Origin: Deltaproteobacteria bacterium | Lineage (GTDB): Bacteria > Desulfobacterota_D > UBA1144 > Nemesobacterales > UBA2774 | Length of the DNA: 64,000 bases | Direction: 5' to 3' | NCBI GenBank assembly: GCA_029262275.1 | Contig: JAJCZS010000011.1 | Location: 1 to 64,000 of the forward strand | Part shown: positions 45,656-58,389 of the stretch, piece after piece | Layout of the letters: the number at the start of each line of letters is the position of its first letter | Numbering within the stretch: position 1 is the first letter of the stretch | Made by a program: the position numbers and the translations under genes | Notes under the pieces: model-generated | The model's input: the letters and a program-made list of their open reading frames with translations, nothing else | Told to the model about the DNA's origin: nothing | The model's database searches: none

Positions 45656-47089
45656 ATGACAAGGTTTTTGCTCCCGCTTTTATTATTGTTTTCCTTATTA
45701 ATTCCTAACCAGGTTGCCCAGTCAGCAAATGAGCAATATGCTGCGAGCGTCGCCCCACTTCTTAATGAAAACCCTAGCAAGAATGGCAGACTAGGAGTAG
45801 TAGTTAAATCACTTAGTTCTGGTGAAACAATTTTTGAACATAACCCGGACAAAATGTATATACCTGCGTCCAATGAAAAGATAATTACCTCTGTCTCTGC
45901 CCTTTCGCTATTAGGTAAGGACTATCGCTTTAAAACAGAATTCTTTTCTGGTGGGGGAATTTCCGACGGTGTCCTACATGGTGGTCTATATATAAAGGGC
46001 TACGGAGATCCAACACTATCAGAGGGTCATCTGGGATATATAGTTTTTCAACTCAAACAACGAGGAGTAAAAGAAATAAAAGGCAAGTTTGTGGTTGATG
46101 ACTCGTTCTTTGGAAGAAATAAATATGCACAAGGCTGGAAAGAAGAATGGAGGGATGATTTCTATAGCCCTGCCATCAGTGCGCTTTCCTTTAATTACAA
46201 CATCATAGAATTAAAAGTATATGCGTCAAAGTCAGGCAACAGACCGTCTGTCAAAATTGAACCTGACGGCTCAAATATTAAAATAATAAATCAAGCTGTT
46301 ACAAGTGGGAAAAAGGGTGCACTTAGAACAACCTGGCAAAATGATGAAACCATTGTGCTTAGCGGAAGAATAAAACCAAAAGCAACTGTTACTCTTAAAA
46401 TCCCTGTATTGAACCCAACTCTCTTTACTGGAAATGTCATTAAAAATGCTATAGAGCAAGCGGGTATTAAAGTCTCAGGAGCCGTTGTAGCAGATAGAGT
46501 TCCAAGATGGGCCAATATTATCTACACACACTACTCAGATCCACTATCCTCTGTCATTGCTGAATATAACAAAAACAGCGTAAACATAATTGGTGAGAAC
46601 CTTATGAAAACCCTAGGGGCAAAGTATAAGGGAGTGCCCGGAACTTGGGAGAAAGGATCTATTGTCATATCAGAATTTCTCAAAGAAGTTGGTATAAAAA
46701 ATGGATTTAAAGTAGTTGACGGCTCGGGGCTTTCTTTATTAAACAGAGTCTCCCCAGAAACGCTGACCGATGTTTTGAGCTACGCATATGAAGACAAATT
46801 GATATCAACTGACTTTATAGAATCTCTCCCCGTAGCTGGTGTTGACGGCACTTTGAGGAAGAGGTTTAGGAACTCTGAGATTCAGGGCAGAGTAAGAGCT
46901 AAAACCGGATATTTAAAAAATGTAAGAGCACTCTCTGGCTATATATTTACGAAAAAAGGCGACGTGCTCGTATTCTCTATTCTCTCAAACGGGTTTGGAT
47001 GGAAAACAAAAGAGCTGCAAAATGACTTGCTCGGTCAGTTAGTTGAATGCTGCAGCAATAACAACCCAAGTCGCTCTGAAGTTAATTAA
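45656..47089 (+). CDS. dacB: D-alanyl-D-alanine carboxypeptidase/endopeptidase (PBP4 type)
   Basis: The 477-residue periplasmic enzyme trims peptidoglycan peptides. The signal peptide covers residues 1-23 (LLLLFSLLIPNQVAQSA). Active-site motifs are SxxK in PASNEKIIT (about residue 72), SxN in KNSVNIIGE (about 307) and KTG in RAKTGYLKN (about 420). A large insert between the first two motifs is characteristic of class C PBP4 enzymes. The start lacks a Shine-Dalgarno and sits 12 bases after a -10 box. Confidence 0.92.
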   Translation: MTRFLLPLLLLFSLLIPNQVAQSANEQYAASVAPLLNENPSKNGRLGVVVKSLSSGETIFEHNPDKMYIPASNEKIITSVSALSLLGKDYRFKTEFFSGGGISDGVLHGGLYIKGYGDPTLSEGHLGYIVFQLKQRGVKEIKGKFVVDDSFFGRNKYAQGWKEEWRDDFYSPAISALSFNYNIIELKVYASKSGNRPSVKIEPDGSNIKIINQAVTSGKKGALRTTWQNDETIVLSGRIKPKATVTLKIPVLNPTLFTGNVIKNAIEQAGIKVSGAVVADRVPRWANIIYTHYSDPLSSVIAEYNKNSVNIIGENLMKTLGAKYKGVPGTWEKGSIVISEFLKEVGIKNGFKVVDGSGLSLLNRVSPETLTDVLSYAYEDKLISTDFIESLPVAGVDGTLRKRFRNSEIQGRVRAKTGYLKNVRALSGYIFTKKGDVLVFSILSNGFGWKTKELQNDLLGQLVECCSNNNPSRSEVN

Positions 47090-48420: not shown

Positions 48421-51162
48421 ATGAAAGGATTTCTTATTAACATTTTGATACTTGGGTTTTTGTTAACACTATACATATATATCAATACCAATAATGAAGG
48501 CCCTATTATTCAGGAAAATGCAGCCCGAACCCAAGAGCTGCAAGATCAATCGCCAAATTATAATGCTGCTGACAATGATCTGACCTACCAGATAGAACAT
48601 GGTGACACCCTTTCTACAATAGGTGAGAAATTTGGTGTGTCTGTAGCAGACATAAAAGAGATAAATGGTCTTAGAGAAGATCAAATTGGTGCTGGCGATT
48701 ACATAGATATCCCAGCTCAAGCTGTAAGCAATAATAATGTCAATTCATATGACCACCTAAACGACTCTAAGATTCTTGCTCAAGCATTTACAGATAATGG
48801 TACCGATGTTTCCTCTGACTCTCCTAGCCTAGAGGGCTCCTCAATTATTGCGCAGGCAGACTTTGACATGGAAAAAAAGAGGGAAGAAAGAAAACTAAAG
48901 CTTGAGCAAAGACGACAGAAGAGGATTGAGCAAAGAGAAGAAATAAGAAGACAAAATACAGAAGGCACCAGCAGTCCTTCTGCCCAACAAGAACAAAAAT
49001 CCCAAGAAACAGATACAGGAACAGGAACAGAAACAAATACAGGAACAGAAACGGAATCCCGAATTCTTATTACCGAAGGAGAGATAGTAAATCTCCAATC
49101 AGAGATGGATGTTCAGGACCTGATTCAAGCAATTAGCGAGATTACAGGTGAGAACTTTATTCTAGATGAATCAGTTAAAGGCAAAAAAATCACTGTTGTA
49201 GCCCCTGGGGGGTTTAAAAGTGAAAATGCAATGAGGTTGTTTGAAACAATACTTAGTCTAAACGGCTTCTCTGTGGTCAAAAAGAATGGAACAAATCTTA
49301 TTGTTCCAAAAAGGGACATTAAATTTCAAGATATTCCTACAGAAATTGGGACAGATTATTCAGATTCCTCTGATAGATTTATTACAAGACTCGTAGAGCT
49401 TCAAAACATACAAGCTAATGAGGTTGCCACAATACTCAGGCCCCTAGTTTCACGTGAAGGTGATATTGTTGTTTATCCGGCTACCAACACATTGGTAATT
49501 ATAGAAAGAGTGGACAATCTAAACAGAATACTAAAAATAATAGAGAACTTTGACGTCGAGACAGAAATTGAATTTATTAAGATACACAATGCCGATGCCG
49601 GAGAGGTAGCCACAAAATTACTAGAGATTTTTGGTGGGTCAAGCAGCTCCTCCGGATCAAGAAGAGCCTCCACAGCTCAAAGAGCCTCTCAGCAGCAAAC
49701 GAGAACAGGTCGTGCTGCAAGTAGAAGTAGAACCTCACAAGCACAACAATCCGCAGCGCCGGCAATAACAGCGCAGTCCACACAGGAATCCTCCCCTGTT
49801 AGCTTTAAGGTAATTACCGACGAGAGAACCAACTCTCTAATAATAATTGCCTACCCAAGTGACATGGCAAAAATTAAAGCCGTAATCGGCATACTTGATG
49901 TAAAGACTGATGAGCCTCAGGAAGGAATATTTGTAATCCGCGTACTAAATGCGGACGCTGAGCAGATAGTAGGTGTATTATCGGCTCTCTTCGGAGGCGG
50001 AGGCGGAGGCGGATTTAGCGGAGGGACACAAAGAACCTCTGGGATCGGATCAGGATCTCCCTTTGGATCAAGCTCCACAGGTGGTTCTAGTTTTGGACAG
50101 GGACAAACAAGACAAACAATACAGAGACAAAATCTAGGTGGCCGTACAGCATCTGTCGTAGCAGAAGCAGATGGGCTCAGAATAACAGCTGATCCAGCTA
50201 CAAATTCAGTAATCATTATTGGTTCCAGAAGAGATTATGAAGAAATAAAAGATGTTATCGACGAGCTCGATATAAGAAGAAAACAAGTATTTGTAGAAGC
50301 TGCAATACTAGAAGTTAGCCTTGATAAGATAAGGTCCTTCGGTACTAATCTTAGTATTGGTTTTACAATCAACGACAACACGCTAGGATTTGGTGGTACT
50401 AATCTCCCAGGAGTTCCAAGTCTGCTTGGAGTAGCTGCAAACCCTGAAACCTCTGCCAATTTGATAGGTAGCCTGTCGGGACTATTCTTAGGTGTCGTTG
50501 GAGAAGAGGTAGATGTTGATGGTTCAGGTCCTATACCTCCTATCCCATCTTTCACAGCACTATTTCAGGCACTTACTTCATTAACTGACGTCAATGTTCT
50601 CTCTACACCTAGTATTATAACGACAGACAATGAACCTGCGGAGATCATCGTAGCAGACGTAATTCCGTTTCCAACAGGAAGCACTGTAGGAGATGGAGGA
50701 GTTACAGTACAAACTATAGAAAGAGAGCCAGTAGGTATTAGGCTTTCGATAACTCCTCAAATTAGCGAAGGTGATTTTTTAAATCTAAATATCCTCACCG
50801 AAGTATCGGCAATAAGAAATGCACCTGTTCCGGGACTTAACACAGAAGAATTTGGTATTGCTACTACCACCAGAACGGCCGACTCCTCGGTAGTTGTAAA
50901 AAATGGTCAGACCATTGTAATAGGTGGCCTTGTTCAGGACAGAGAAAGCGTCCTACAAAATAGAGTTCCCGTACTTGGAAGTATTCCTGTTCTTGGAAAT
51001 CTATTTAAATTTAAACAAATACAAAGCACAAAAATAAACCTCATGATACTTCTTACACCAAGAATTGTAGAAAATGAGGTTGACATGCAGCGCATATTAG
51101 AAGAAAGACAAAAAAGAAATATGCTGCTGCAGGAAAGGGGATTCAACCGAGAAGAACAATAA
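48421..51162 (+). CDS. gspD: Type II secretion secretin GspD with N-terminal LysM domain
   Basis: The 913-residue secretin forms the outer-membrane channel. After an N-terminal hydrophobic helix (residues 4-21) comes a LysM domain at about 54-98 (YQIEHGDTLSTIGEKFGVS). A charged coiled region (KKREERKLKLEQRRQKRIEQ) and a Thr/Glu-rich linker follow. The N0 domain starts near 220, then come N1-N3 with Gly/Ser/Gln-rich insertions (about 405-460 and 520-570). The secretin barrel ends in VPVLGSIPVLGNLF and LMILLTPRIV. LysM in front of N0 is unusual for GspD and could fix the channel to peptidoglycan. No lipobox is present. Confidence 0.92.
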   Translation: MKGFLINILILGFLLTLYIYINTNNEGPIIQENAARTQELQDQSPNYNAADNDLTYQIEHGDTLSTIGEKFGVSVADIKEINGLREDQIGAGDYIDIPAQAVSNNNVNSYDHLNDSKILAQAFTDNGTDVSSDSPSLEGSSIIAQADFDMEKKREERKLKLEQRRQKRIEQREEIRRQNTEGTSSPSAQQEQKSQETDTGTGTETNTGTETESRILITEGEIVNLQSEMDVQDLIQAISEITGENFILDESVKGKKITVVAPGGFKSENAMRLFETILSLNGFSVVKKNGTNLIVPKRDIKFQDIPTEIGTDYSDSSDRFITRLVELQNIQANEVATILRPLVSREGDIVVYPATNTLVIIERVDNLNRILKIIENFDVETEIEFIKIHNADAGEVATKLLEIFGGSSSSSGSRRASTAQRASQQQTRTGRAASRSRTSQAQQSAAPAITAQSTQESSPVSFKVITDERTNSLIIIAYPSDMAKIKAVIGILDVKTDEPQEGIFVIRVLNADAEQIVGVLSALFGGGGGGGFSGGTQRTSGIGSGSPFGSSSTGGSSFGQGQTRQTIQRQNLGGRTASVVAEADGLRITADPATNSVIIIGSRRDYEEIKDVIDELDIRRKQVFVEAAILEVSLDKIRSFGTNLSIGFTINDNTLGFGGTNLPGVPSLLGVAANPETSANLIGSLSGLFLGVVGEEVDVDGSGPIPPIPSFTALFQALTSLTDVNVLSTPSIITTDNEPAEIIVADVIPFPTGSTVGDGGVTVQTIEREPVGIRLSITPQISEGDFLNLNILTEVSAIRNAPVPGLNTEEFGIATTTRTADSSVVVKNGQTIVIGGLVQDRESVLQNRVPVLGSIPVLGNLFKFKQIQSTKINLMILLTPRIVENEVDMQRILEERQKRNMLLQERGFNREEQ

Positions 51163-51177
51163 TACTGGTTGATCAAT

Positions 51178-52872
51178 ATGAAAAGCATACAAGAAATTAT
51201 AAGCGAAAGAAATCCTGAAGCTCTTGTAAAAATAGACGAGATACTGTCTAAAAATGAAGAGAGCGTAGAAGAAGCAATTTTAAATCACCACGTACTCGAA
51301 GACGAAGAAGTACTTGAGGTACTCTCTCAATTCTACGAATTCCCTTATATATTGAATATTGCTGATAAAGATATTGACCCTGAACTCGTAAAAACCTTGC
51401 CTATTAGCTTTGCAAGAAAATACCGTCTGATCCCATTTCAGAGAAAACAAGACAGCGTTGTAATTGTTTTTGCACCCCCATTCGACTTATATGCTCTGGA
51501 CGAAATAAAATCACTTTTTGGCTGTGAAATAGAGCCGGTATTAGCTCTCAATCATGTTGTCGTCAATAGCATTAACCGAGTCTATGAGCGCGATAAAGAA
51601 ATGGCGGAAGGTATCGAAGATGATACTGAAGGAATAACCGAATACGATATCCATGAACCTAAAGATTTGCTCGATGCTGATGATGAAGCTCCTATCATTA
51701 GATTTGTTAACTCCCTTCTCTTCCAAGCGGTAAAAGAAAAGGCTAGTGATATACATCTGGAATGCTTTGAGAAAGAAGTATCGGTTAGGTTCAGAAAAGA
51801 CGGAATACTACACGAAATCACCTCAGTGCCTAAAAAGCTTCAAGCATCTGTAATATCCAGAGTAAAAATTATGGCAGAGCTTGATATTGCAGAGAAGAGA
51901 AAACCCCAAGATGGAAGGATAAGAGTAAAAGTAGCTGGAAGAGACGTGGACGTTCGTATTTCAACTGTACCCACAACTTGGGGTGAGAGTGTTGTAATGA
52001 GGCTCTTGGACCGATCCTCTGTTCTACTCAGTTTGGAGGACCTTGGATTAAAAGGCGACAAACTTGACGTAGTCGAGACGTTAATACGACGACCTCACGG
52101 CATTATTCTTGTAACAGGACCAACAGGTAGCGGAAAAACAACAAGCCTGTATGCAGCTTTAGAGCGAATAAACTCACCAGACAAGAAAATCATTACAGTA
52201 GAAGATCCGGTGGAATATCAGATTCAGGGAATTAATCAGATACAAGTTAATTCAAAGGTAAACCTTTCTTTTGCAAATGGACTTAGATCAATACTACGTC
52301 AGGACCCGGATGTAATTCTTGTGGGTGAGATCAGAGACAGAGAAACTGCGGACATTGCGATTCATGCATCTCTGACCGGACACTTGGTATTTTCAACCCT
52401 TCACACAAATGATTCTGCTAGCGCAATAACTAGGCTTATAGATATGGAAATAGAACCATTTTTGGTTGCATCTTCGCTTATGGCAGTAATAGCGCAAAGA
52501 CTTCTTCGTCTTCTATGTCCATCCTGCAGAGAGCCTTATGAACCTTCAGATGACGAACTTAAAAAAATAGGAATAAAAAGAGAACAACTTAAAGACGGAA
52601 GACTTTACCGTGCCAAGGGATGCGATAAATGTTTTGATATGGGATACAGCGGAAGATCCGCAATATTTGAAATGTTAATAATAGATGATGAGATTAGAAA
52701 CTTAACACTTGGTAACGTAGATTCGGGTCAGATCAAAAGAAAAGCAATAGAACACGGAATGACCACACTGAGAATGGACGGAGCCAAGCATATATTAAGA
52801 GGTTTAACTTCTATAGATGAGGTAATGCGTGTCACTGAAGAGGAGAGCATTAGCTCACAAGAACAGGGCTAG
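51178..52872 (+). CDS. gspE: Type II secretion ATPase GspE
   Basis: The 564-residue cytoplasmic hexameric ATPase powers pseudopilus assembly. The N-terminal N1E/MshEN-type domain (about 1-150) is followed by the catalytic domain with Walker A GPTGSGKTTSLYA and the Asp box ITVEDPVEYQI. The Walker B region is ILRQDPDVILVGEIRD and the His box is LTGHLVFSTLHTNDS. A zinc tetracysteine motif (CPSC at the start, CDKC at the end) is intact. ATG 51178 is preferred over a TTG at 51169. It starts 15 bases after gspD. Confidence 0.94.
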   Translation: MKSIQEIISERNPEALVKIDEILSKNEESVEEAILNHHVLEDEEVLEVLSQFYEFPYILNIADKDIDPELVKTLPISFARKYRLIPFQRKQDSVVIVFAPPFDLYALDEIKSLFGCEIEPVLALNHVVVNSINRVYERDKEMAEGIEDDTEGITEYDIHEPKDLLDADDEAPIIRFVNSLLFQAVKEKASDIHLECFEKEVSVRFRKDGILHEITSVPKKLQASVISRVKIMAELDIAEKRKPQDGRIRVKVAGRDVDVRISTVPTTWGESVVMRLLDRSSVLLSLEDLGLKGDKLDVVETLIRRPHGIILVTGPTGSGKTTSLYAALERINSPDKKIITVEDPVEYQIQGINQIQVNSKVNLSFANGLRSILRQDPDVILVGEIRDRETADIAIHASLTGHLVFSTLHTNDSASAITRLIDMEIEPFLVASSLMAVIAQRLLRLLCPSCREPYEPSDDELKKIGIKREQLKDGRLYRAKGCDKCFDMGYSGRSAIFEMLIIDDEIRNLTLGNVDSGQIKRKAIEHGMTTLRMDGAKHILRGLTSIDEVMRVTEEESISSQEQG

Positions 52873-52875
52873 TCC

Positions 52876-52903
52876 TTACAATTCTAACTATCCAACGTAT
52901 AAT
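52876..52903 (+). promoter_or_regulatory. Internal promoter before gspF
   Basis: TTACAA at 52876-52881 and a perfect TATAAT at 52898-52903 have 16-base spacing in the 42-base gspE-gspF gap. The gspF ATG at 52915 lies 11 bases past the -10 box and has no Shine-Dalgarno, so this would give a leaderless transcript for the pseudopilus half of the operon. Confidence 0.55.
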
Positions 52904-52914
52904 TATTACTAAAT

Positions 52915-54120
52915 ATGCCGGTATATAAGTACAAAGCCATAGATGAGAGCGGAAAAGCGGTTCAGGGTGTTATTGACGCTGATTCCCCTAAAGGTGCAAC
53001 AGAAAAATTAAAACGCCAAGGAGTTTTTCTATCCTCGCTAAATGAGGCAAAGGAAAGCAAAGCAAGAAGTTTTAATCCTTTTAAGGGAATAAAGATTGCA
53101 GAGCTTGCAGTAACAACTAGACAGTTCTCAACTCTTATTTCTGCCGGTCTTCCGCTTGAGGCCTCCTTAAGTGCACTTTCAGAGCAAACCGAAGATGTCA
53201 GACTGGGTCAGGTGCTTGCTGAAGTCAGAGAAAGGGTAAGTGAGGGTAGCTCACTAGCAAGTGCTCTTGGCGAGCATAAAGACGTATTTTCCGATCTTTA
53301 TATTAATATTGTAAGGGCTGGAGAAGCAAGTGGTACTTTAGACATTGTGCTTCTTAGACTGGCAGACTTTTTAGAGACTCAAGCCGCTCTTACCTCCAGA
53401 GTCAGGGGCGCTCTAATTTACCCTATGTTTATGTTTGTTATTGGAGGCGGAGTTCTATTTTTCACTATGACTTTTGTCATTCCTAGAATTGCTAAGATAT
53501 TTGAAGAAAGCCAAAGTTCACTTCCATTAATGACACTTATACTGATTAAGATGAGTGACTTCTTAAACAATTACATACTATTTATTCTATTATTCATTGT
53601 AGCTCTTGTTTTTGCGGCTTACCGTTTTCACACCACAGAGCGGGGTCAAATGTTTTTTGACCGCTTAATGTTAAAAGTACCGGTATTCGGCAAACTTACT
53701 TCCATGGTAGTGATATCCAGATTTACCCGTACATTGGGAACTCTCTTATCAAGCGGTATCCCTCTATTAGATGCCCTTGAAATAGGAGAGGCTGTTATGG
53801 GGAACAAAGTATATGGAAAGACTTTGCAGGAAGTAAGAGTCAATGTAAGAGAAGGTGCTAGTTTGGCACAGCCGCTTAGAGAAAGCGGCGTATTCCCTCC
53901 ACTTGTCACACGTATGATAGCAGTAGGTGAGCAGACTGGTGAAATGGAGGCTATGCTATCTAAAGTTGCCGACATCTATGATCAGCAGGTTGAGACTATG
54001 GTTTCAACTCTGACATCTCTTCTTGAGCCTGTTATGATTGTTCTAATAGGTGCGATTATGGCCTTTATAGTTTTTGCTGTATTACTACCGATATTCAATT
54101 TGACATCAACAGTTGGTTAA
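52915..54120 (+). CDS. gspF: Type II secretion inner-membrane platform protein GspF
   Basis: The 401-residue polytopic protein has an N-terminal YKYKAIDESGKAVQGVIDAD segment and two T2SSF domains (about 65-190 and 268-390). The matching signatures are LAVTTRQFSTLISAGLPLEASL and ISRFTRTLGTLLSSGIPLLDAL. Three transmembrane helices lie at about 168-192, 215-240 and 370-395. It anchors the GspE ATPase. The start seems leaderless. gspG follows after 15 bases with AAGGAGG. Confidence 0.94.
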   Translation: MPVYKYKAIDESGKAVQGVIDADSPKGATEKLKRQGVFLSSLNEAKESKARSFNPFKGIKIAELAVTTRQFSTLISAGLPLEASLSALSEQTEDVRLGQVLAEVRERVSEGSSLASALGEHKDVFSDLYINIVRAGEASGTLDIVLLRLADFLETQAALTSRVRGALIYPMFMFVIGGGVLFFTMTFVIPRIAKIFEESQSSLPLMTLILIKMSDFLNNYILFILLFIVALVFAAYRFHTTERGQMFFDRLMLKVPVFGKLTSMVVISRFTRTLGTLLSSGIPLLDALEIGEAVMGNKVYGKTLQEVRVNVREGASLAQPLRESGVFPPLVTRMIAVGEQTGEMEAMLSKVADIYDQQVETMVSTLTSLLEPVMIVLIGAIMAFIVFAVLLPIFNLTSTVG

Positions 54121-54135
54121 AAGGAGGTATTAAAT

Positions 54136-54564
54136 ATGAGAGCCCAAGGTGGTTTCACATTAATTGAAATTATGGTTGTACTGCTAATCATTGCAGGATT
54201 GGCATATATCGTCGGTACCAATGTAATTGGTCAACTAGATAAATCTAAAGTAGAAAATACAAAGATTCAGATTACCCAGCTAGAATCAGGACTTAAGTTG
54301 TTTAAGGTTGACAACGGCTTCTATCCTGACACCCAGCAAGGATTAGATGCTTTAATAACAAGACCTTCTAGTGGAAGAGAGCCCAGACGTTATGATCCTA
54401 ACGGATATTTAGATGGGGATCAGGTACCGTTTGATCAGTGGGGCAGCGAATTTCTATATATTGGCCCTGATCAGACAGGAAATACGACTTATGAAATAAT
54501 TTCTCCTGGCCCAGATGGGGTACCTCAAAGTGAGGATGATATTTCTAGTCGTAATATAAGGTAA
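54136..54564 (+). CDS. gspG: Type II secretion major pseudopilin GspG
   Basis: The 142-residue major pseudopilin has a short leader with cleavage and N-methylation site QGG|FTLIEIMVVLLII and the essential Glu at +5. The C-terminal domain has the GspG fingerprint: DNGFYPDTQQGLDALITRP, then DPNGYLDGDQVPFDQWGSEFLY and SPGPDGVPQSEDDI, which carries the calcium-binding acidic residues. AAGGAGG is the strongest Shine-Dalgarno of the operon, fitting high expression of the major subunit. The stop shares one base with the gspH ATG. Confidence 0.96.
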   Translation: MRAQGGFTLIEIMVVLLIIAGLAYIVGTNVIGQLDKSKVENTKIQITQLESGLKLFKVDNGFYPDTQQGLDALITRPSSGREPRRYDPNGYLDGDQVPFDQWGSEFLYIGPDQTGNTTYEIISPGPDGVPQSEDDISSRNIR

Positions 54565-55079
54565 TGACAAGAGAAGGAAGAGAAAAAGGATTTACACTTA
54601 TAGAGATGTTAGTTGTAATCCTGATTATAGGGGCATTCTTTTTTGTGGCAGTGCCAAAGTTTCAGGATTTAACTGAGGTGAATCTAAAAAGTGCGTCACG
54701 CAATTTGACCGCAACTATAAAATATTTATACAATGAAGCGGCCTTTAAGAAAAACATATATAGGCTAGTGTTTGATGTGGAAGCAGGGGAGTATTGGGTG
54801 GAGAGTCTTCAGGGAAACGAATATGGGGCCTTTGAAGATTCCAAAAGACACAGGCTTCCAAATGGAATCTATTTTAAGGATGTTGTAACTGAGCGCAGTC
54901 TGGAGAGAAACCCTCTTGAAAATGAAAGAGAATTTATTCTCTTTTTACCAACTGGGTTTGTTGAGCCCGCTGTTATTCATATCCACACTGATGATGAAAG
55001 ATACTACACGCTCGCTACAAAGCCCTACACAGGCGGCACAAAAGTATATGATGAATATGTAGAGCTTCTCAGAAGGTAG
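54564..55079 (+). CDS. gspH: Minor pseudopilin GspH
   Basis: The 171-residue protein has a charged leader and the prepilin motif EKG|FTLIEMLVVILIIG followed by a beta-rich domain (SASRNLTATIKYLYNEAAFKKNIYRLVFDVEAGEY). Size, position after gspG and the mixed alpha-beta body fit GspH. Assignment to H rather than another minor pseudopilin is from gene order. The start overlaps the gspG stop by one base. Confidence 0.85.
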   Translation: MTREGREKGFTLIEMLVVILIIGAFFFVAVPKFQDLTEVNLKSASRNLTATIKYLYNEAAFKKNIYRLVFDVEAGEYWVESLQGNEYGAFEDSKRHRLPNGIYFKDVVTERSLERNPLENEREFILFLPTGFVEPAVIHIHTDDERYYTLATKPYTGGTKVYDEYVELLRR

Positions 55080-55095
55080 GAGGGAGGGGTAATTT

Positions 55096-55482
55096 ATGCA
55101 AGAACAGTTTAATTGTTCAAGACAAAAGGGATTTACTCTTCTTGAGGTAGTAATTGCAGTTGCCATAATGGGAGCTTCACTGGCAATACTTTTAGGGGCA
55201 GTAAACAGAAATTTAGTGCTGGCTTCACAATCAAAAAACCAGTCAATTGCACAATCCCTAGCTCAGCAAAAAATAACAGAGATTGAGCTTGAGGGTTATC
55301 CAGAAGTGGGTCAAGAACAAGGGATATTTGAAGAATTCCCCGGATTTTCTTGGTATGTAAATATACTTCCTTATGATATTGAACAGCTTGGTACAGAGAT
55401 AAGAATAGTAATGGTGGATATTGCATGGGATGAAGGGAACAGGGTGTTTAAAGTTGCAACAGCAATCTCAAACCACAAATGA
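55096..55482 (+). CDS. gspI: Minor pseudopilin GspI
   Basis: The 128-residue protein has prepilin motif [23 protein letters not shown] and a short body with [25 protein letters not shown], the typical GspI helix. [13 protein letters not shown] corresponds to the family FxWxxxV segment. GspI, J and K form the tip complex of the pseudopilus. GGAGGGAGGGG lies before the ATG. The gene overlaps gspJ by more than 50 bases. Confidence 0.9.
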
Positions 55483-56119
55483 TGGCTTCACTCTTATTGA
55501 GGTACTTTTAGCCGTTTTCATCGCATCAATAGTGATGGCGGTCCTATACGCCTCCTTTTTCCAGGTACTAAAAGCAAAAGAAAAGGTAGAACAAGAGCTT
55601 GAACTGTACCATGAGGCAAGAGTGATTTTTTCTAAGATGACAAAGGATCTGGCAACAGCTTTTCCAAGAGGGAGGGTGAATTCTGATTCAAACACTGCTG
55701 CATCTGACTTCTTCGTAGGCGCTCAAGAAGGTAAACATAGTGCACTTAAATTCACATCACTATCAAGAACCCCTGCTGTAGATGCAAAAGAATCAGATCA
55801 GACGGAAATAACTTACTTCGTCCAACCTGCCAATGAGGAAGATCCAGAACTATTCGCATTAATTAGAAGAGATGACCCTACTATTGGAACAGATGGGGGA
55901 GGCTCAGAGTATCCAATATCAGAGCGTATTGTAGGATTTACCGTCTCCTATTTAGGAGAAGCATCTCTTGCGACTGAAAATCAGGAACTAACCTTTGAGT
56001 GGGACTCAAATGAATTGTCTACACTTCCAAATGCGGTGAATGTAAATATAGTATTAAGGGGTCCCAGAGGGGAAAACGTAGAGTTCAACACATTTATTTT
56101 GATTCCGGTTGTACAGTAA
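55430..56119 (+). CDS. gspJ: Minor pseudopilin GspJ
   Basis: The protein has about 229 residues and prepilin motif [24 protein letters not shown]. The GspJ-like body has [26 protein letters not shown] and, later, [19 protein letters not shown]. The start is uncertain: ATG 55430, TTG 55421 or a TTG near 55454 would give leaders of about 20, 23 or 12 residues. All lie inside gspI, so translation is coupled. It belongs to the I-J-K tip complex. Confidence 0.87.
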
Positions 56120-56143
56120 TGTAATTACCAAAAGAGTGATTTT

Positions 56144-57253
56144 ATGCAAAGGATAGAACAAACAAAAAGATTAAGAAAACAAGACTCCGAGAAGGGAATT
56201 GTACTGGTAATAGTAATAATCATTGTCGCCATACTTACTATTTTAGTCGCAGATCTGATCTACTTCACACAAATTGATAGAGAAATATCTGGTAATACAA
56301 CTGACGAAGTTAAAGCACGTTATATTGCTAAATCCGGTGTTCACGTAGCAGCCGGGACTCTCAAAGCACAGCCACTTGAAGATTTAGATGAGATAGCATC
56401 AACACTTGCAACAAGCAGTGATTATTCAAGTGGATTTTGGGCCATTAATGTTCCATTCTTTCCAGTTGGCGACGGAACTGTTTCTGTAACAGTTATTGAT
56501 GAGAGAGCTAAAGTTAATCTAAATGCACTAGTCGATGATTCTTCTAACAGGGTAGATCAACAAGTTCTTGTAGAGTTACAAGAACTTTTTAAGTTTTTGG
56601 AAGTAGATGAATCTAAGTCTGAGAGATTCATTGCAAGTTTGACTAACTGGATAGATAAACCTATAGAAGGTGCGCAAAATGATCAAGATTCAAGTGGGGC
56701 TAACGCTGATTTTTATTCTAGCCAAAAAAATGCTTACATTATAAAGAACGGCTCACTAGACACTGTTCAGGAAATACGGTTAATTGATGGAATGGATGAA
56801 GAGTTTTTCAACAAGATTAAGGACTTTGTCACAGTCTATCCTAGAGATAAGAAAATAAATTTTAGTACAGCACCAAAAGTAGTAATTATGGCTGCTGTTA
56901 AAGCATCAACAGTGCCAGCAATAGAAGGACAAGGAAATCCAGATACTGAAGATGTCACTGATGACTCAGCTGAGCAAATAGCTGATGAAATTATTGCTGC
57001 AAGAGAGGAAGAGCCTGTTATTGATCAAAAAAAGGCCAGAGAGATTGCAACTGGCGTGGATTCGACCTCTGCAATAAGCGCGGGGTTAATAGGAGTCCTA
57101 GTAAATTCAGGCTACAGCGATACTTTCTCAGTCAAATCTGTGGGAAGTCTTGGAGAAGCAAATCCAACAAAAAGAATAATAGAAGCTATACTAATGAAAA
57201 CTAATGAAAATAATCAAAACAAGGTAGAAATAATCTCATGGAAAGAGCTCTAG
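56144..57253 (+). CDS. gspK: Minor pseudopilin GspK
   Basis: The 369-residue pseudopilus cap protein has an N-terminal prepilin-like helix (SEKGIVLVIVIIIVAILTILVADLIYF) that lacks Phe and Glu+5, as is common in GspK. Then come DREISGNTTDEVKARYIAKSGVHVAA, VTVIDERAKVNLNALVDD and the inserted SAM-like helical domain (LTNWIDKPIEGAQNDQDSSGAN, DTVQEIRLIDGMDEEFFNKIKDFVTVYP). Its last 16 bases overlap the ATG of the MoxR-family gene. No gspL or gspM follows. Confidence 0.92.
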   Translation: MQRIEQTKRLRKQDSEKGIVLVIVIIIVAILTILVADLIYFTQIDREISGNTTDEVKARYIAKSGVHVAAGTLKAQPLEDLDEIASTLATSSDYSSGFWAINVPFFPVGDGTVSVTVIDERAKVNLNALVDDSSNRVDQQVLVELQELFKFLEVDESKSERFIASLTNWIDKPIEGAQNDQDSSGANADFYSSQKNAYIIKNGSLDTVQEIRLIDGMDEEFFNKIKDFVTVYPRDKKINFSTAPKVVIMAAVKASTVPAIEGQGNPDTEDVTDDSAEQIADEIIAAREEEPVIDQKKAREIATGVDSTSAISAGLIGVLVNSGYSDTFSVKSVGSLGEANPTKRIIEAILMKTNENNQNKVEIISWKEL

Positions 57254-58389
57254 AAAAACTAAACGAAATTCGAGGCGAATTAAAAGCCAGATATTTAGAG
57301 AGAGATGAAGTTATTGACGGAACGTTGATAGCACTTCTAACCAATAATCATATGCTTCTTATTGGTCCTCCTGGAACAGCAAAATCGCAGCTTGTAAGTG
57401 AGGTATGTAATAAAATCCAAGGAGCCAGGTATTTTCAGTGGTTACTTACTAAATTCACAGCCCCAGAAGAGCTTTTTGGAGCTGTAAGCTTAAAAGGTCT
57501 TGAAAACGATGAATATCGCAGAGTAACAATTGGAAAGCTCCCTGAGGCTCATATTGTATTTTTAGATGAGGTTTTTAAAGCAAGTTCTTCTATCTTAAAT
57601 ACGCTTCTTACTGTAATGAATGAGAGAATTTACTATAATGGAACTGAAGTTTCTGACATACCTCTGATCTCTATGTTTGGAGCAAGCAACGAGCTTCCTT
57701 CAGAAGAAGACGAGCTTGAAGCCCTGTATGACAGGTTTTTGTTGAGATATGTAGTAGATTACATCAAAGAGGATTTCAGATTTCTAAAACTACTGCAAGG
57801 AGAAGATAGCAACTCTTCAGAAACAATTATTACTCCTAAGGAGCTTGAGGCCTGCAAATCTCAGGCAATGGGAACAGTGCTTCCTGCTAATATCATGAAA
57901 CTTATTGGACGGATTCGAACGGAACTCAACAAAAAGGGCATTCGTCCTTCTGATAGAAGGTATAAACAGAGTATGTCTGTAATTAAAGCTAAGGCCTATC
58001 TAGACGGAAGAAAGGAAGTTTCGGAGGAAGACCTGCGTTATTTGGAAAATGTGCTGTGGAGAGACCCGGGAGAGAAAGCAGAGATACAATCAGTGATTCA
58101 CCAGGCACTTCACGGATACAAAGATAGACTAAGGGAACTGATCATCCAAGCTAAGGAGCTTGACGGCTATAGCAAGAGAGAGTGGGAAAATGAGGATTTG
58201 AGTATTAAGGCCAACATTGAAGCACAGACTAAACTCAAACAGATTGTATCAAATGTAGATGAACTAATAGAAGAATGTGAGCAAAGGGGTAAACCAACAG
58301 ATGATATAAGCAAAGCAAAAATTGAAATTGAAGAAATCCAGAAGGAAATCTTAGATAGGCTAGTTTCAGGCAGTGAGGAAATGGCTTAA
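57238..58389 (+). CDS. MoxR/RavA-family AAA+ ATPase
   Basis: The 383-residue ATPase has Walker A LLIGPPGTAKSQL (about residue 42), Walker B HIVFLDEVFKASSSILN (about 107) and sensor 1 SMFGASNELPSEEDELEALYDRFLLRYVV. The RavA-like lid RPSDRRYKQSMSVIKAKAYLDGR is also present. The C-terminal 100 residues are helical (coiled-coil-like). MoxR ATPases act as chaperones that mature protein complexes, usually with a VWA-domain partner; no VWA gene follows here. Its ATG is inside gspK, so it is made together with the pseudopilus tip proteins. A role in secretion machine assembly is inference. Confidence 0.88.
   Translation: MERALEKLNEIRGELKARYLERDEVIDGTLIALLTNNHMLLIGPPGTAKSQLVSEVCNKIQGARYFQWLLTKFTAPEELFGAVSLKGLENDEYRRVTIGKLPEAHIVFLDEVFKASSSILNTLLTVMNERIYYNGTEVSDIPLISMFGASNELPSEEDELEALYDRFLLRYVVDYIKEDFRFLKLLQGEDSNSSETIITPKELEACKSQAMGTVLPANIMKLIGRIRTELNKKGIRPSDRRYKQSMSVIKAKAYLDGRKEVSEEDLRYLENVLWRDPGEKAEIQSVIHQALHGYKDRLRELIIQAKELDGYSKREWENEDLSIKANIEAQTKLKQIVSNVDELIEECEQRGKPTDDISKAKIEIEEIQKEILDRLVSGSEEMA

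What the first reader, a model, noticed from the sequence alone, without database searches (positions are those of the whole stretch)
48421..49080. LysM domain fused to the N-terminus of the GspD secretin
GspD normally begins with a signal peptide and N0. Here a hydrophobic helix, a LysM peptidoglycan-binding domain and a charged coil come first. This may replace GspA/GspB-type or pilotin functions by fixing the channel to the wall. There is no obvious lipobox or pilotin gene nearby.
Basis: partly seen in the sequence, partly recalled or inferred. Interest (0 to 1): 0.6.

Follow-up and report, generated by a model that had tools for sequence, protein, structure and literature searches.

The report
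Secretion channel with wall-binding membrane anchor
In one family of the uncultured bacterial phylum Dadabacteria, the outer-membrane channel protein of the type II secretion system carries its own cell-wall-binding domain and what looks like a permanent inner-membrane anchor, jobs that better-studied bacteria give to separate helper proteins.

Summary
ORF 48421-51162 is a GspD secretin (TIGR02517, 501.6 bits) whose N0 domain is preceded by a hydrophobic helix (aa 4-22), a bona fide LysM domain (aa 56-98, Pfam 36.9 bits against a cut-off of 20.9) and a long charged helix. The host is a Candidatus Dadabacteria MAG; the gene sits in a gspC-K operon. LysM-N0 occurs in all 12 readable GspDs of this family, in two other families of the order, and is absent in two more. 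It was not found in 112 secretin-N0 loci sampled from other lineages, where AMIN and SPOR domains occur instead.

The less obvious part is the helix. It is as conserved as N0 (mean identity 0.90 against 0.92, and 0.44 for the cleaved PBP4 signal peptide of the same genomes), is under purifying selection (pN/pS 0.10) and lacks a signal-peptidase or lipobox site, so it is probably a retained inner-membrane anchor.

Best reading: GspD carries in cis the anchoring functions shown for GspB/OutB. Peptidoglycan binding and non-cleavage are inferred, not shown. Absence of GspA is supported; absence of GspB could not be tested. New variant of a known kind; SPOR-LspD is the nearest T2SS precedent.

The parts
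48421..51162 (+). gspD, T2SS secretin with TM-LysM-charged helix N-terminal extension (913 aa)
48430..48486 (+). hydrophobic helix aa 4-22, predicted uncleaved inner-membrane anchor
   Evidence: AF2 helix 3-24; identity 0.90 among 8 genomes; pN/pS 0.10 and no SPase I site
48487..48543 (+). conserved juxtamembrane segment NTNNExxxIQENxAxTxEL (aa 23-41)
48586..48714 (+). LysM domain, aa 56-98
   Evidence: Pfam PF01476 36.9 bits; whole-genome hit 40.8 bits; fold match 4uz2/4uz3
48715..48837 (+). disordered spacer, aa 99-139
   Evidence: poorly conserved
48838..48963 (+). charged K/R/E/Q-rich helix, aa 140-181
   Evidence: charge pattern kept in relatives
49102..49290 (+). N0 domain, aa 228-290
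   Evidence: PF21305
50569..51072 (+). secretin barrel domain, aa 717-884
   Evidence: PF00263; the only secretin found in the genome
47393..48331 (+). gspC (GspC_delta NF041515)
51169..57253 (+). gspE, F, G, H, I, J, K
   Evidence: GspE, J and K; F-I by position, size, prepilin motifs and conserved order
45656..47089 (+). PBP4-type D-Ala-D-Ala carboxypeptidase/endopeptidase, conserved neighbour of gspC in this family
   Evidence: TIGR00666; synteny

Best explanation
This is the GspD secretin of a largely complete type II secretion system whose periplasmic entrance is anchored in cis. The N-terminal helix is an uncleaved signal-anchor (N-terminus in the cytoplasm) that keeps each subunit tethered to the inner membrane. 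The LysM domain, about 30 flexible residues further, binds the glycan strands of peptidoglycan. A flexible spacer, a charged helix of about 6 nm and a second flexible linker then connect to N0-N1-N2-N3 and the outer-membrane barrel. One polypeptide would thus do the anchoring functions shown for GspB/OutB (inner-membrane anchor and wall attachment, there joined to the secretin by an HR-N0 contact), holding the channel over the GspC/L/M/F platform and in its hole in the wall. Shown: domains, conservation, distribution, purifying selection on the helix, lack of a conventional cleavage site, a single secretin in the genome. Inferred: peptidoglycan binding, retention of the helix, the anchoring function.
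For: LysM profile and fold are unambiguous. The TM-LysM-N0 layout is conserved in 12 of 12 readable GspDs of the family. In 8 genomes the helix has mean pairwise identity 0.90, against N0 0.92, GspC TM 0.80, LysM 0.66, linker 0.32 and the cleavable PBP4 signal peptide 0.44. Synonymous change is high (pS 0.75) while pN is 0.075, so this is selection and not recent descent. A permissive -3/-1 or lipobox pattern follows the hydrophobic stretch in 87 of 87 surveyed non-Dadabacterial N-termini but in 1 of 12 here. Linkers (about 31, 41 and 36 residues plus a 42-residue helix) are long enough to let the N-terminus sit in the inner membrane while N0 and the barrel keep their usual places (length estimate). 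Precedents for the functions: OutB TM + HR + peptidoglycan-binding tail (PMC9239104), LspD SPOR-N0 (PMC6617341), PilQ AMIN and TsaP LysM (PMC9239104, PMC7545093).
Against: No binding or localisation data exist. The -3/-1 rule is crude and SignalP was not available; some signal peptides are cleaved at atypical sites. The 12 sequences are one lineage, so the missing cleavage site is one evolutionary observation. Related families (f2, f4) carry LysM behind N-termini that have permissive cleavage sites, so LysM does not require a retained helix. Families f3 and f7 do without LysM altogether, so it is not essential to a Dadabacterial T2SS. The paper searches turned up no secretin with an uncleaved inner-membrane helix to support the topology, though I read only some of the hits.
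Confidence: 0.6

Rival explanations
1. LysM is a wall anchor or localiser as above, but the helix is simply a signal peptide cleaved at an unconventional site; the mature protein begins near LysM and works like SPOR-LspD or AMIN-PilQ.
For: LysM-bearing GspDs of families f2 and f4 have permissive cleavage sites; LspD and PilQ are established precedents (PMC6617341, PMC7545093); signal-peptide cleavage is the rule for secretins (general knowledge).
Against: No acceptable site in residues 19-41 in 11 of 12 orthologues; helix conservation equals that of N0 and far exceeds a true signal peptide in the same genomes.
Confidence: 0.3
2. The LysM domain does not hold the channel to the wall statically but positions the machine at sites where the wall is being remodelled, together with the neighbouring PBP4 DD-endopeptidase, so that a hole is opened for the 15-mer.
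For: PBP4 lies upstream of gspC in every f1 locus with enough flank; the LysM of FimV affects secretin assembly and localisation in Pseudomonas (PMC5285504).
Against: PBP4 is separated from gspC by about 300 bp and was not found near gspC in f2, f3 or f7 loci, including LysM-bearing f2; the association could be plain synteny.
Confidence: 0.15
3. The LysM domain has lost glycan binding and serves as a protein-protein or self-association module in the secretin ring.
For: LysM is less conserved than the other folded domains (identity 0.66; pN/pS 0.28).
Against: Core motif residues (GDxLSxI, NGL, GxYIDIP) are invariant in the 8-sequence alignment; the fold is canonical; two further families, one with two LysM copies, carry it at the same place.
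Confidence: 0.08

Closest known systems
Legionella LspD (T2SS secretin with SPOR domain before N0)
   Same: A peptidoglycan-binding domain fused before N0 of a T2SS GspD; GspA, GspB and pilotin equivalents reported absent there (PMC6617341)
   Different: The domain is SPOR, not LysM; Legionella is unrelated to Dadabacteria; no retained N-terminal helix is reported in the passages read
GspB/OutB scaffold protein
   Same: Single N-terminal inner-membrane helix, peptidoglycan attachment and connection to N0 (PMC9239104)
   Different: A separate protein that binds N0 through an HR domain; here the link to N0 is covalent, the wall module is LysM and there is no HR domain
PilQ with AMIN domains, plus TsaP (LysM)
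   Same: Secretin anchored to peptidoglycan through N-terminal domains; TsaP uses a LysM-type domain (PMC9239104, PMC7545093)
   Different: Type IV pilus; AMIN rather than LysM in the secretin, and LysM on a separate protein
FliO with LysM or AMIN domains
   Same: LysM acquired lineage-specifically by a membrane-anchored secretion component (PMC12403147)
   Different: Flagellar export apparatus, not a secretin

Membership tests
T2SS secretin GspD | N0, three Secretin_N and Secretin domains with GspD equivalog score | tested here: met
   TIGR02517 501.6 bits against cut-off 351; PF21305, PF03958 x3, PF00263
T2SS secretin GspD | Encoded with other T2SS core genes | tested here: met
   gspC-D-E-F-G-H-I-J-K here; gspL-like and gspM genes on contig C9
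T2SS secretin GspD | N-terminal cleavable signal peptide or lipoprotein signal (usual rather than strictly defining) | tested here: inconclusive
   No N-terminal cysteine and no permissive SPase I site in aa 19-45 of the window protein, but cleavage itself cannot be measured here
LysM domain PF01476 | Profile score over the gathering cut-off and beta-alpha-alpha-beta fold | tested here: met
   36.9 bits against 20.9; Foldseek 4uz2/4uz3
LysM domain PF01476 | Binds peptidoglycan or N-acetylglucosamine oligomers | not testable with these tools
   Needs a binding assay; motif residues conserved
LspD-type SPOR secretin | SPOR domain PF05036 before N0 | tested here: not met
   No SPOR match; LysM instead
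PilQ-type secretin | AMIN domains before N0 and the PilQ score | tested here: not met
   No AMIN; TIGR02515 178 bits under its cut-off of 284
GspB/OutB | HR domain (T2SSB PF16537) that binds N0 | tested here: not met
   No PF16537 match in this GspD; works-like comparison only
GspA/ExeA as separate partner in this genome | AAA ATPase with PF01471 peptidoglycan-binding domain | tested here: not met
   Only two PF01471 proteins in G000: YkuD L,D-transpeptidase (616 aa) and a 270-aa protein without AAA
GspB as separate partner in this genome | T2SSB PF16537 | tested here: inconclusive
   No match in 58 genomes, but no control genome rang either
T2SS pilotin in this genome | AspS-type PF16549 lipoprotein | tested here: not met
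   No match, E. coli control rang; OutS/PulS and TPR types were not tested

The most novel reading that the evidence does not exclude
A secretin whose subunits span both membranes: each GspD keeps an uncleaved helix in the inner membrane, passes through and binds the wall by LysM, and ends in the outer-membrane barrel, making a covalently continuous trans-envelope channel with a ring of about 15 inner-membrane helices around the pseudopilus platform.
Probability: 0.5. Interest if true: 0.72.

Novelty: new variant of a known kind. Interest (0 to 1): 0.48.

Why it matters
How T2SS channels are fixed in the wall and aligned with the inner-membrane platform is solved differently in different bacteria (GspA/GspB, SPOR-LspD, AMIN-PilQ/TsaP). 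A LysM secretin adds a further independent solution and supports a general rule that secretins need a wall anchor next to N0. If the helix is retained, it would be, as far as the papers searched here show, the first secretin subunit anchored in the inner membrane. It would also offer a way to test whether inner-membrane and wall tethering is what GspB-type scaffolds are for, by supplying the function in cis.

Tried and rejected
(1) GspA candidates: PF01471 proteins of 534-657 aa across the phylum looked at first like GspA, but the G000 member is an L,D-transpeptidase with Scaffold and YkuD domains; the members in other genomes were not each checked. (2) Internal start: a shorter GspD starting after LysM was rejected because the helix region is under purifying selection and the annotated start has a Shine-Dalgarno-like site. 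(3) Fusion by assembly error: rejected, 12 genomes share it. (4) A missing GspL (PF05134 below cut-off) turned out to be a divergent gspL-like gene next to gspM on contig C9. (5) The MoxR-type AAA protein after gspK is not GspA: bpMoxR family, no PF01471 match. (6) A second domain-wide sample mostly overlapped the first; together with untested places of the first it added 25 loci. (7) The T2SSB search is uninformative because no control rang.

Full report
Observation. The window holds a T2SS operon gspC-D-E-F-G-H-I-J-K. The gspD ORF 48421-51162 encodes 913 aa and meets the GspD equivalog (501.6 bits). Before N0 (aa 228-290) lie a hydrophobic helix (aa 4-22), a LysM domain (aa 56-98; 36.9 bits, E 3e-9), a disordered spacer, a 42-residue charged helix (140-181) and a second spacer (AlphaFold2). 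The LysM model matches crystal structures of LysM domains at 0.5-0.8 A over about 45 residues.

Host and distribution. Named relatives are Candidatus Dadabacteria MAGs, some filed as Thermodesulfobacteriota or Deltaproteobacteria. In the 58 genomes of the phylum, the own family (f1) has TM-LysM-N0 in all 12 readable GspDs. Family f2 has LysM-N0 in 5 of 5 readable genes; in a sixth genome (G006) the LysM lies in a separate upstream frame, probably a frameshift. Family f4 has two LysM copies. Families f3 (1 read) and f7 (8 read) have GspD without LysM. The small-genome family f8 showed no N0 at E 1e-6. In a tree of GspD from N0 onward, Dadabacterial sequences are monophyletic (100/100); f7 groups with f4, f1 is a clade, and f3 falls outside the rest, with weak support at that fork (83/51). 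The simplest reading is one early gain of LysM and loss in f7, with f3 either primitively without it or a second loss.

Outside the phylum, N0-bearing loci were sampled from two overlapping domain-wide sets of about 390 genomes each. 112 loci were scanned with a LysM profile built from LysM domains of this genome and gave no hit even at E 10. 66 of the N-termini were scanned with Pfam: no LysM, but AMIN in 3, SPOR in 1, TPR in 4. So a wall-binding domain before N0 recurs in other lineages, but LysM was seen only here. No paper found in the held library describes LysM in a GspD; PMC9239104 states that only LspD was known to have a wall-binding domain in a T2SS secretin.

The helix. A cleaved signal peptide drifts; this one does not. 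In the same eight genomes, mean pairwise identity is 0.90 for aa 1-23 of GspD, 0.92 for N0, 0.92 for the secretin domain, 0.80 for the GspC membrane helix, 0.66 for LysM, 0.32 for the linker and 0.44 for the PBP4 signal peptide. Over 12 genomes the helix has pS 0.75 and pN 0.075 (ratio 0.10; N0 0.05, LysM 0.28). A permissive signal-peptidase I or lipobox pattern after the hydrophobic stretch is found in 87 of 87 surveyed N-termini and in 1 of 12 here. LysM-bearing GspDs of f2 and f4 do have permissive sites, so the retained helix appears to be a second step, specific to f1. The charge pattern (K/R at residue 2, acidic or neutral segment after the helix) fits an N-in, C-out anchor. This is inference: no SignalP and no experiment.

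System context. This GspD is the only secretin found in the genome. A GspL-like protein (510 aa) and GspM (198 aa) are encoded on contig C9, followed by a 301-aa gene that may be GspN- or AsmA-like. GspA, defined by AAA + PF01471, was not found: the two PF01471 proteins are an L,D-transpeptidase and a 270-aa protein without AAA. An AspS pilotin was not found, with the E. coli control positive. The GspB search is uninformative.

Mechanism. OutB/GspB has three shown functions: a transmembrane helix anchors it to the inner membrane, an HR domain binds secretin N0, and a C-terminal tail attaches it to peptidoglycan (PMC9239104). Here helix and wall module are covalently attached to N0. The simplest explanation is that Dadabacterial GspD carries this scaffold function in cis, as SPOR-LspD may do for the wall part in Legionella, which lacks GspA and GspB (PMC6617341). 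The linkers are long enough (roughly 11 nm from helix to LysM if extended, and more beyond) for one chain to reach from inner membrane to wall to the N0 ring without displacing the barrel. Steps shown: domain content, conservation, selection, distribution, no GspA found. Steps inferred: glycan binding, non-cleavage, anchoring.

Verdict. Real, conserved and, in this sample, lineage-specific. In kind it is a known theme (wall-anchored secretin) with a new module and probably a new membrane anchor: a new variant of a known kind.

Noticed in passing
L137 1541-1969 (-), G041:C18; similar in most f1 genomes and in G007 of f2: A stand-alone protein of about 140-180 aa made of a hydrophobic N-terminus and a single GspD-type N0 domain (PF21305 52.7 bits), with no secretin barrel, is common in the family; possibly a soluble competitor or adaptor for GspC-type HR domains. 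It was not detected in the window's own genome at E 1e-6.
   Followed up: partly
window 45656-47089: A PBP4-type DD-carboxypeptidase/endopeptidase lies upstream of gspC in every f1 locus with enough flank, but was not found near gspC in the f2, f3 and f7 loci read.
   Followed up: partly
window 57238-58389: A MoxR-type AAA ATPase gene overlaps the gspK stop codon by 16 nt; the arrangement is conserved in f1 and in one f2 genome, suggesting translational coupling to the T2SS operon.
   Followed up: partly
G015-G028 (genus g17 of family f7): Besides lacking LysM in GspD, these 1.3-1.9 Mb genomes have hardly any matches to the LysM part of the profile at E 1e-5, reminiscent of the streamlining described for marine Dadabacteria (PMC8115339); f7 was not identified with the marine clades here.
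   Followed up: no
L052 (G150) and one unnamed member of alignment A3: AMIN-N0 and SPOR-N0 secretins occur in the domain-wide survey; AMIN was seen in L052 directly, SPOR in one member of the scanned set that the output does not name.
   Followed up: no
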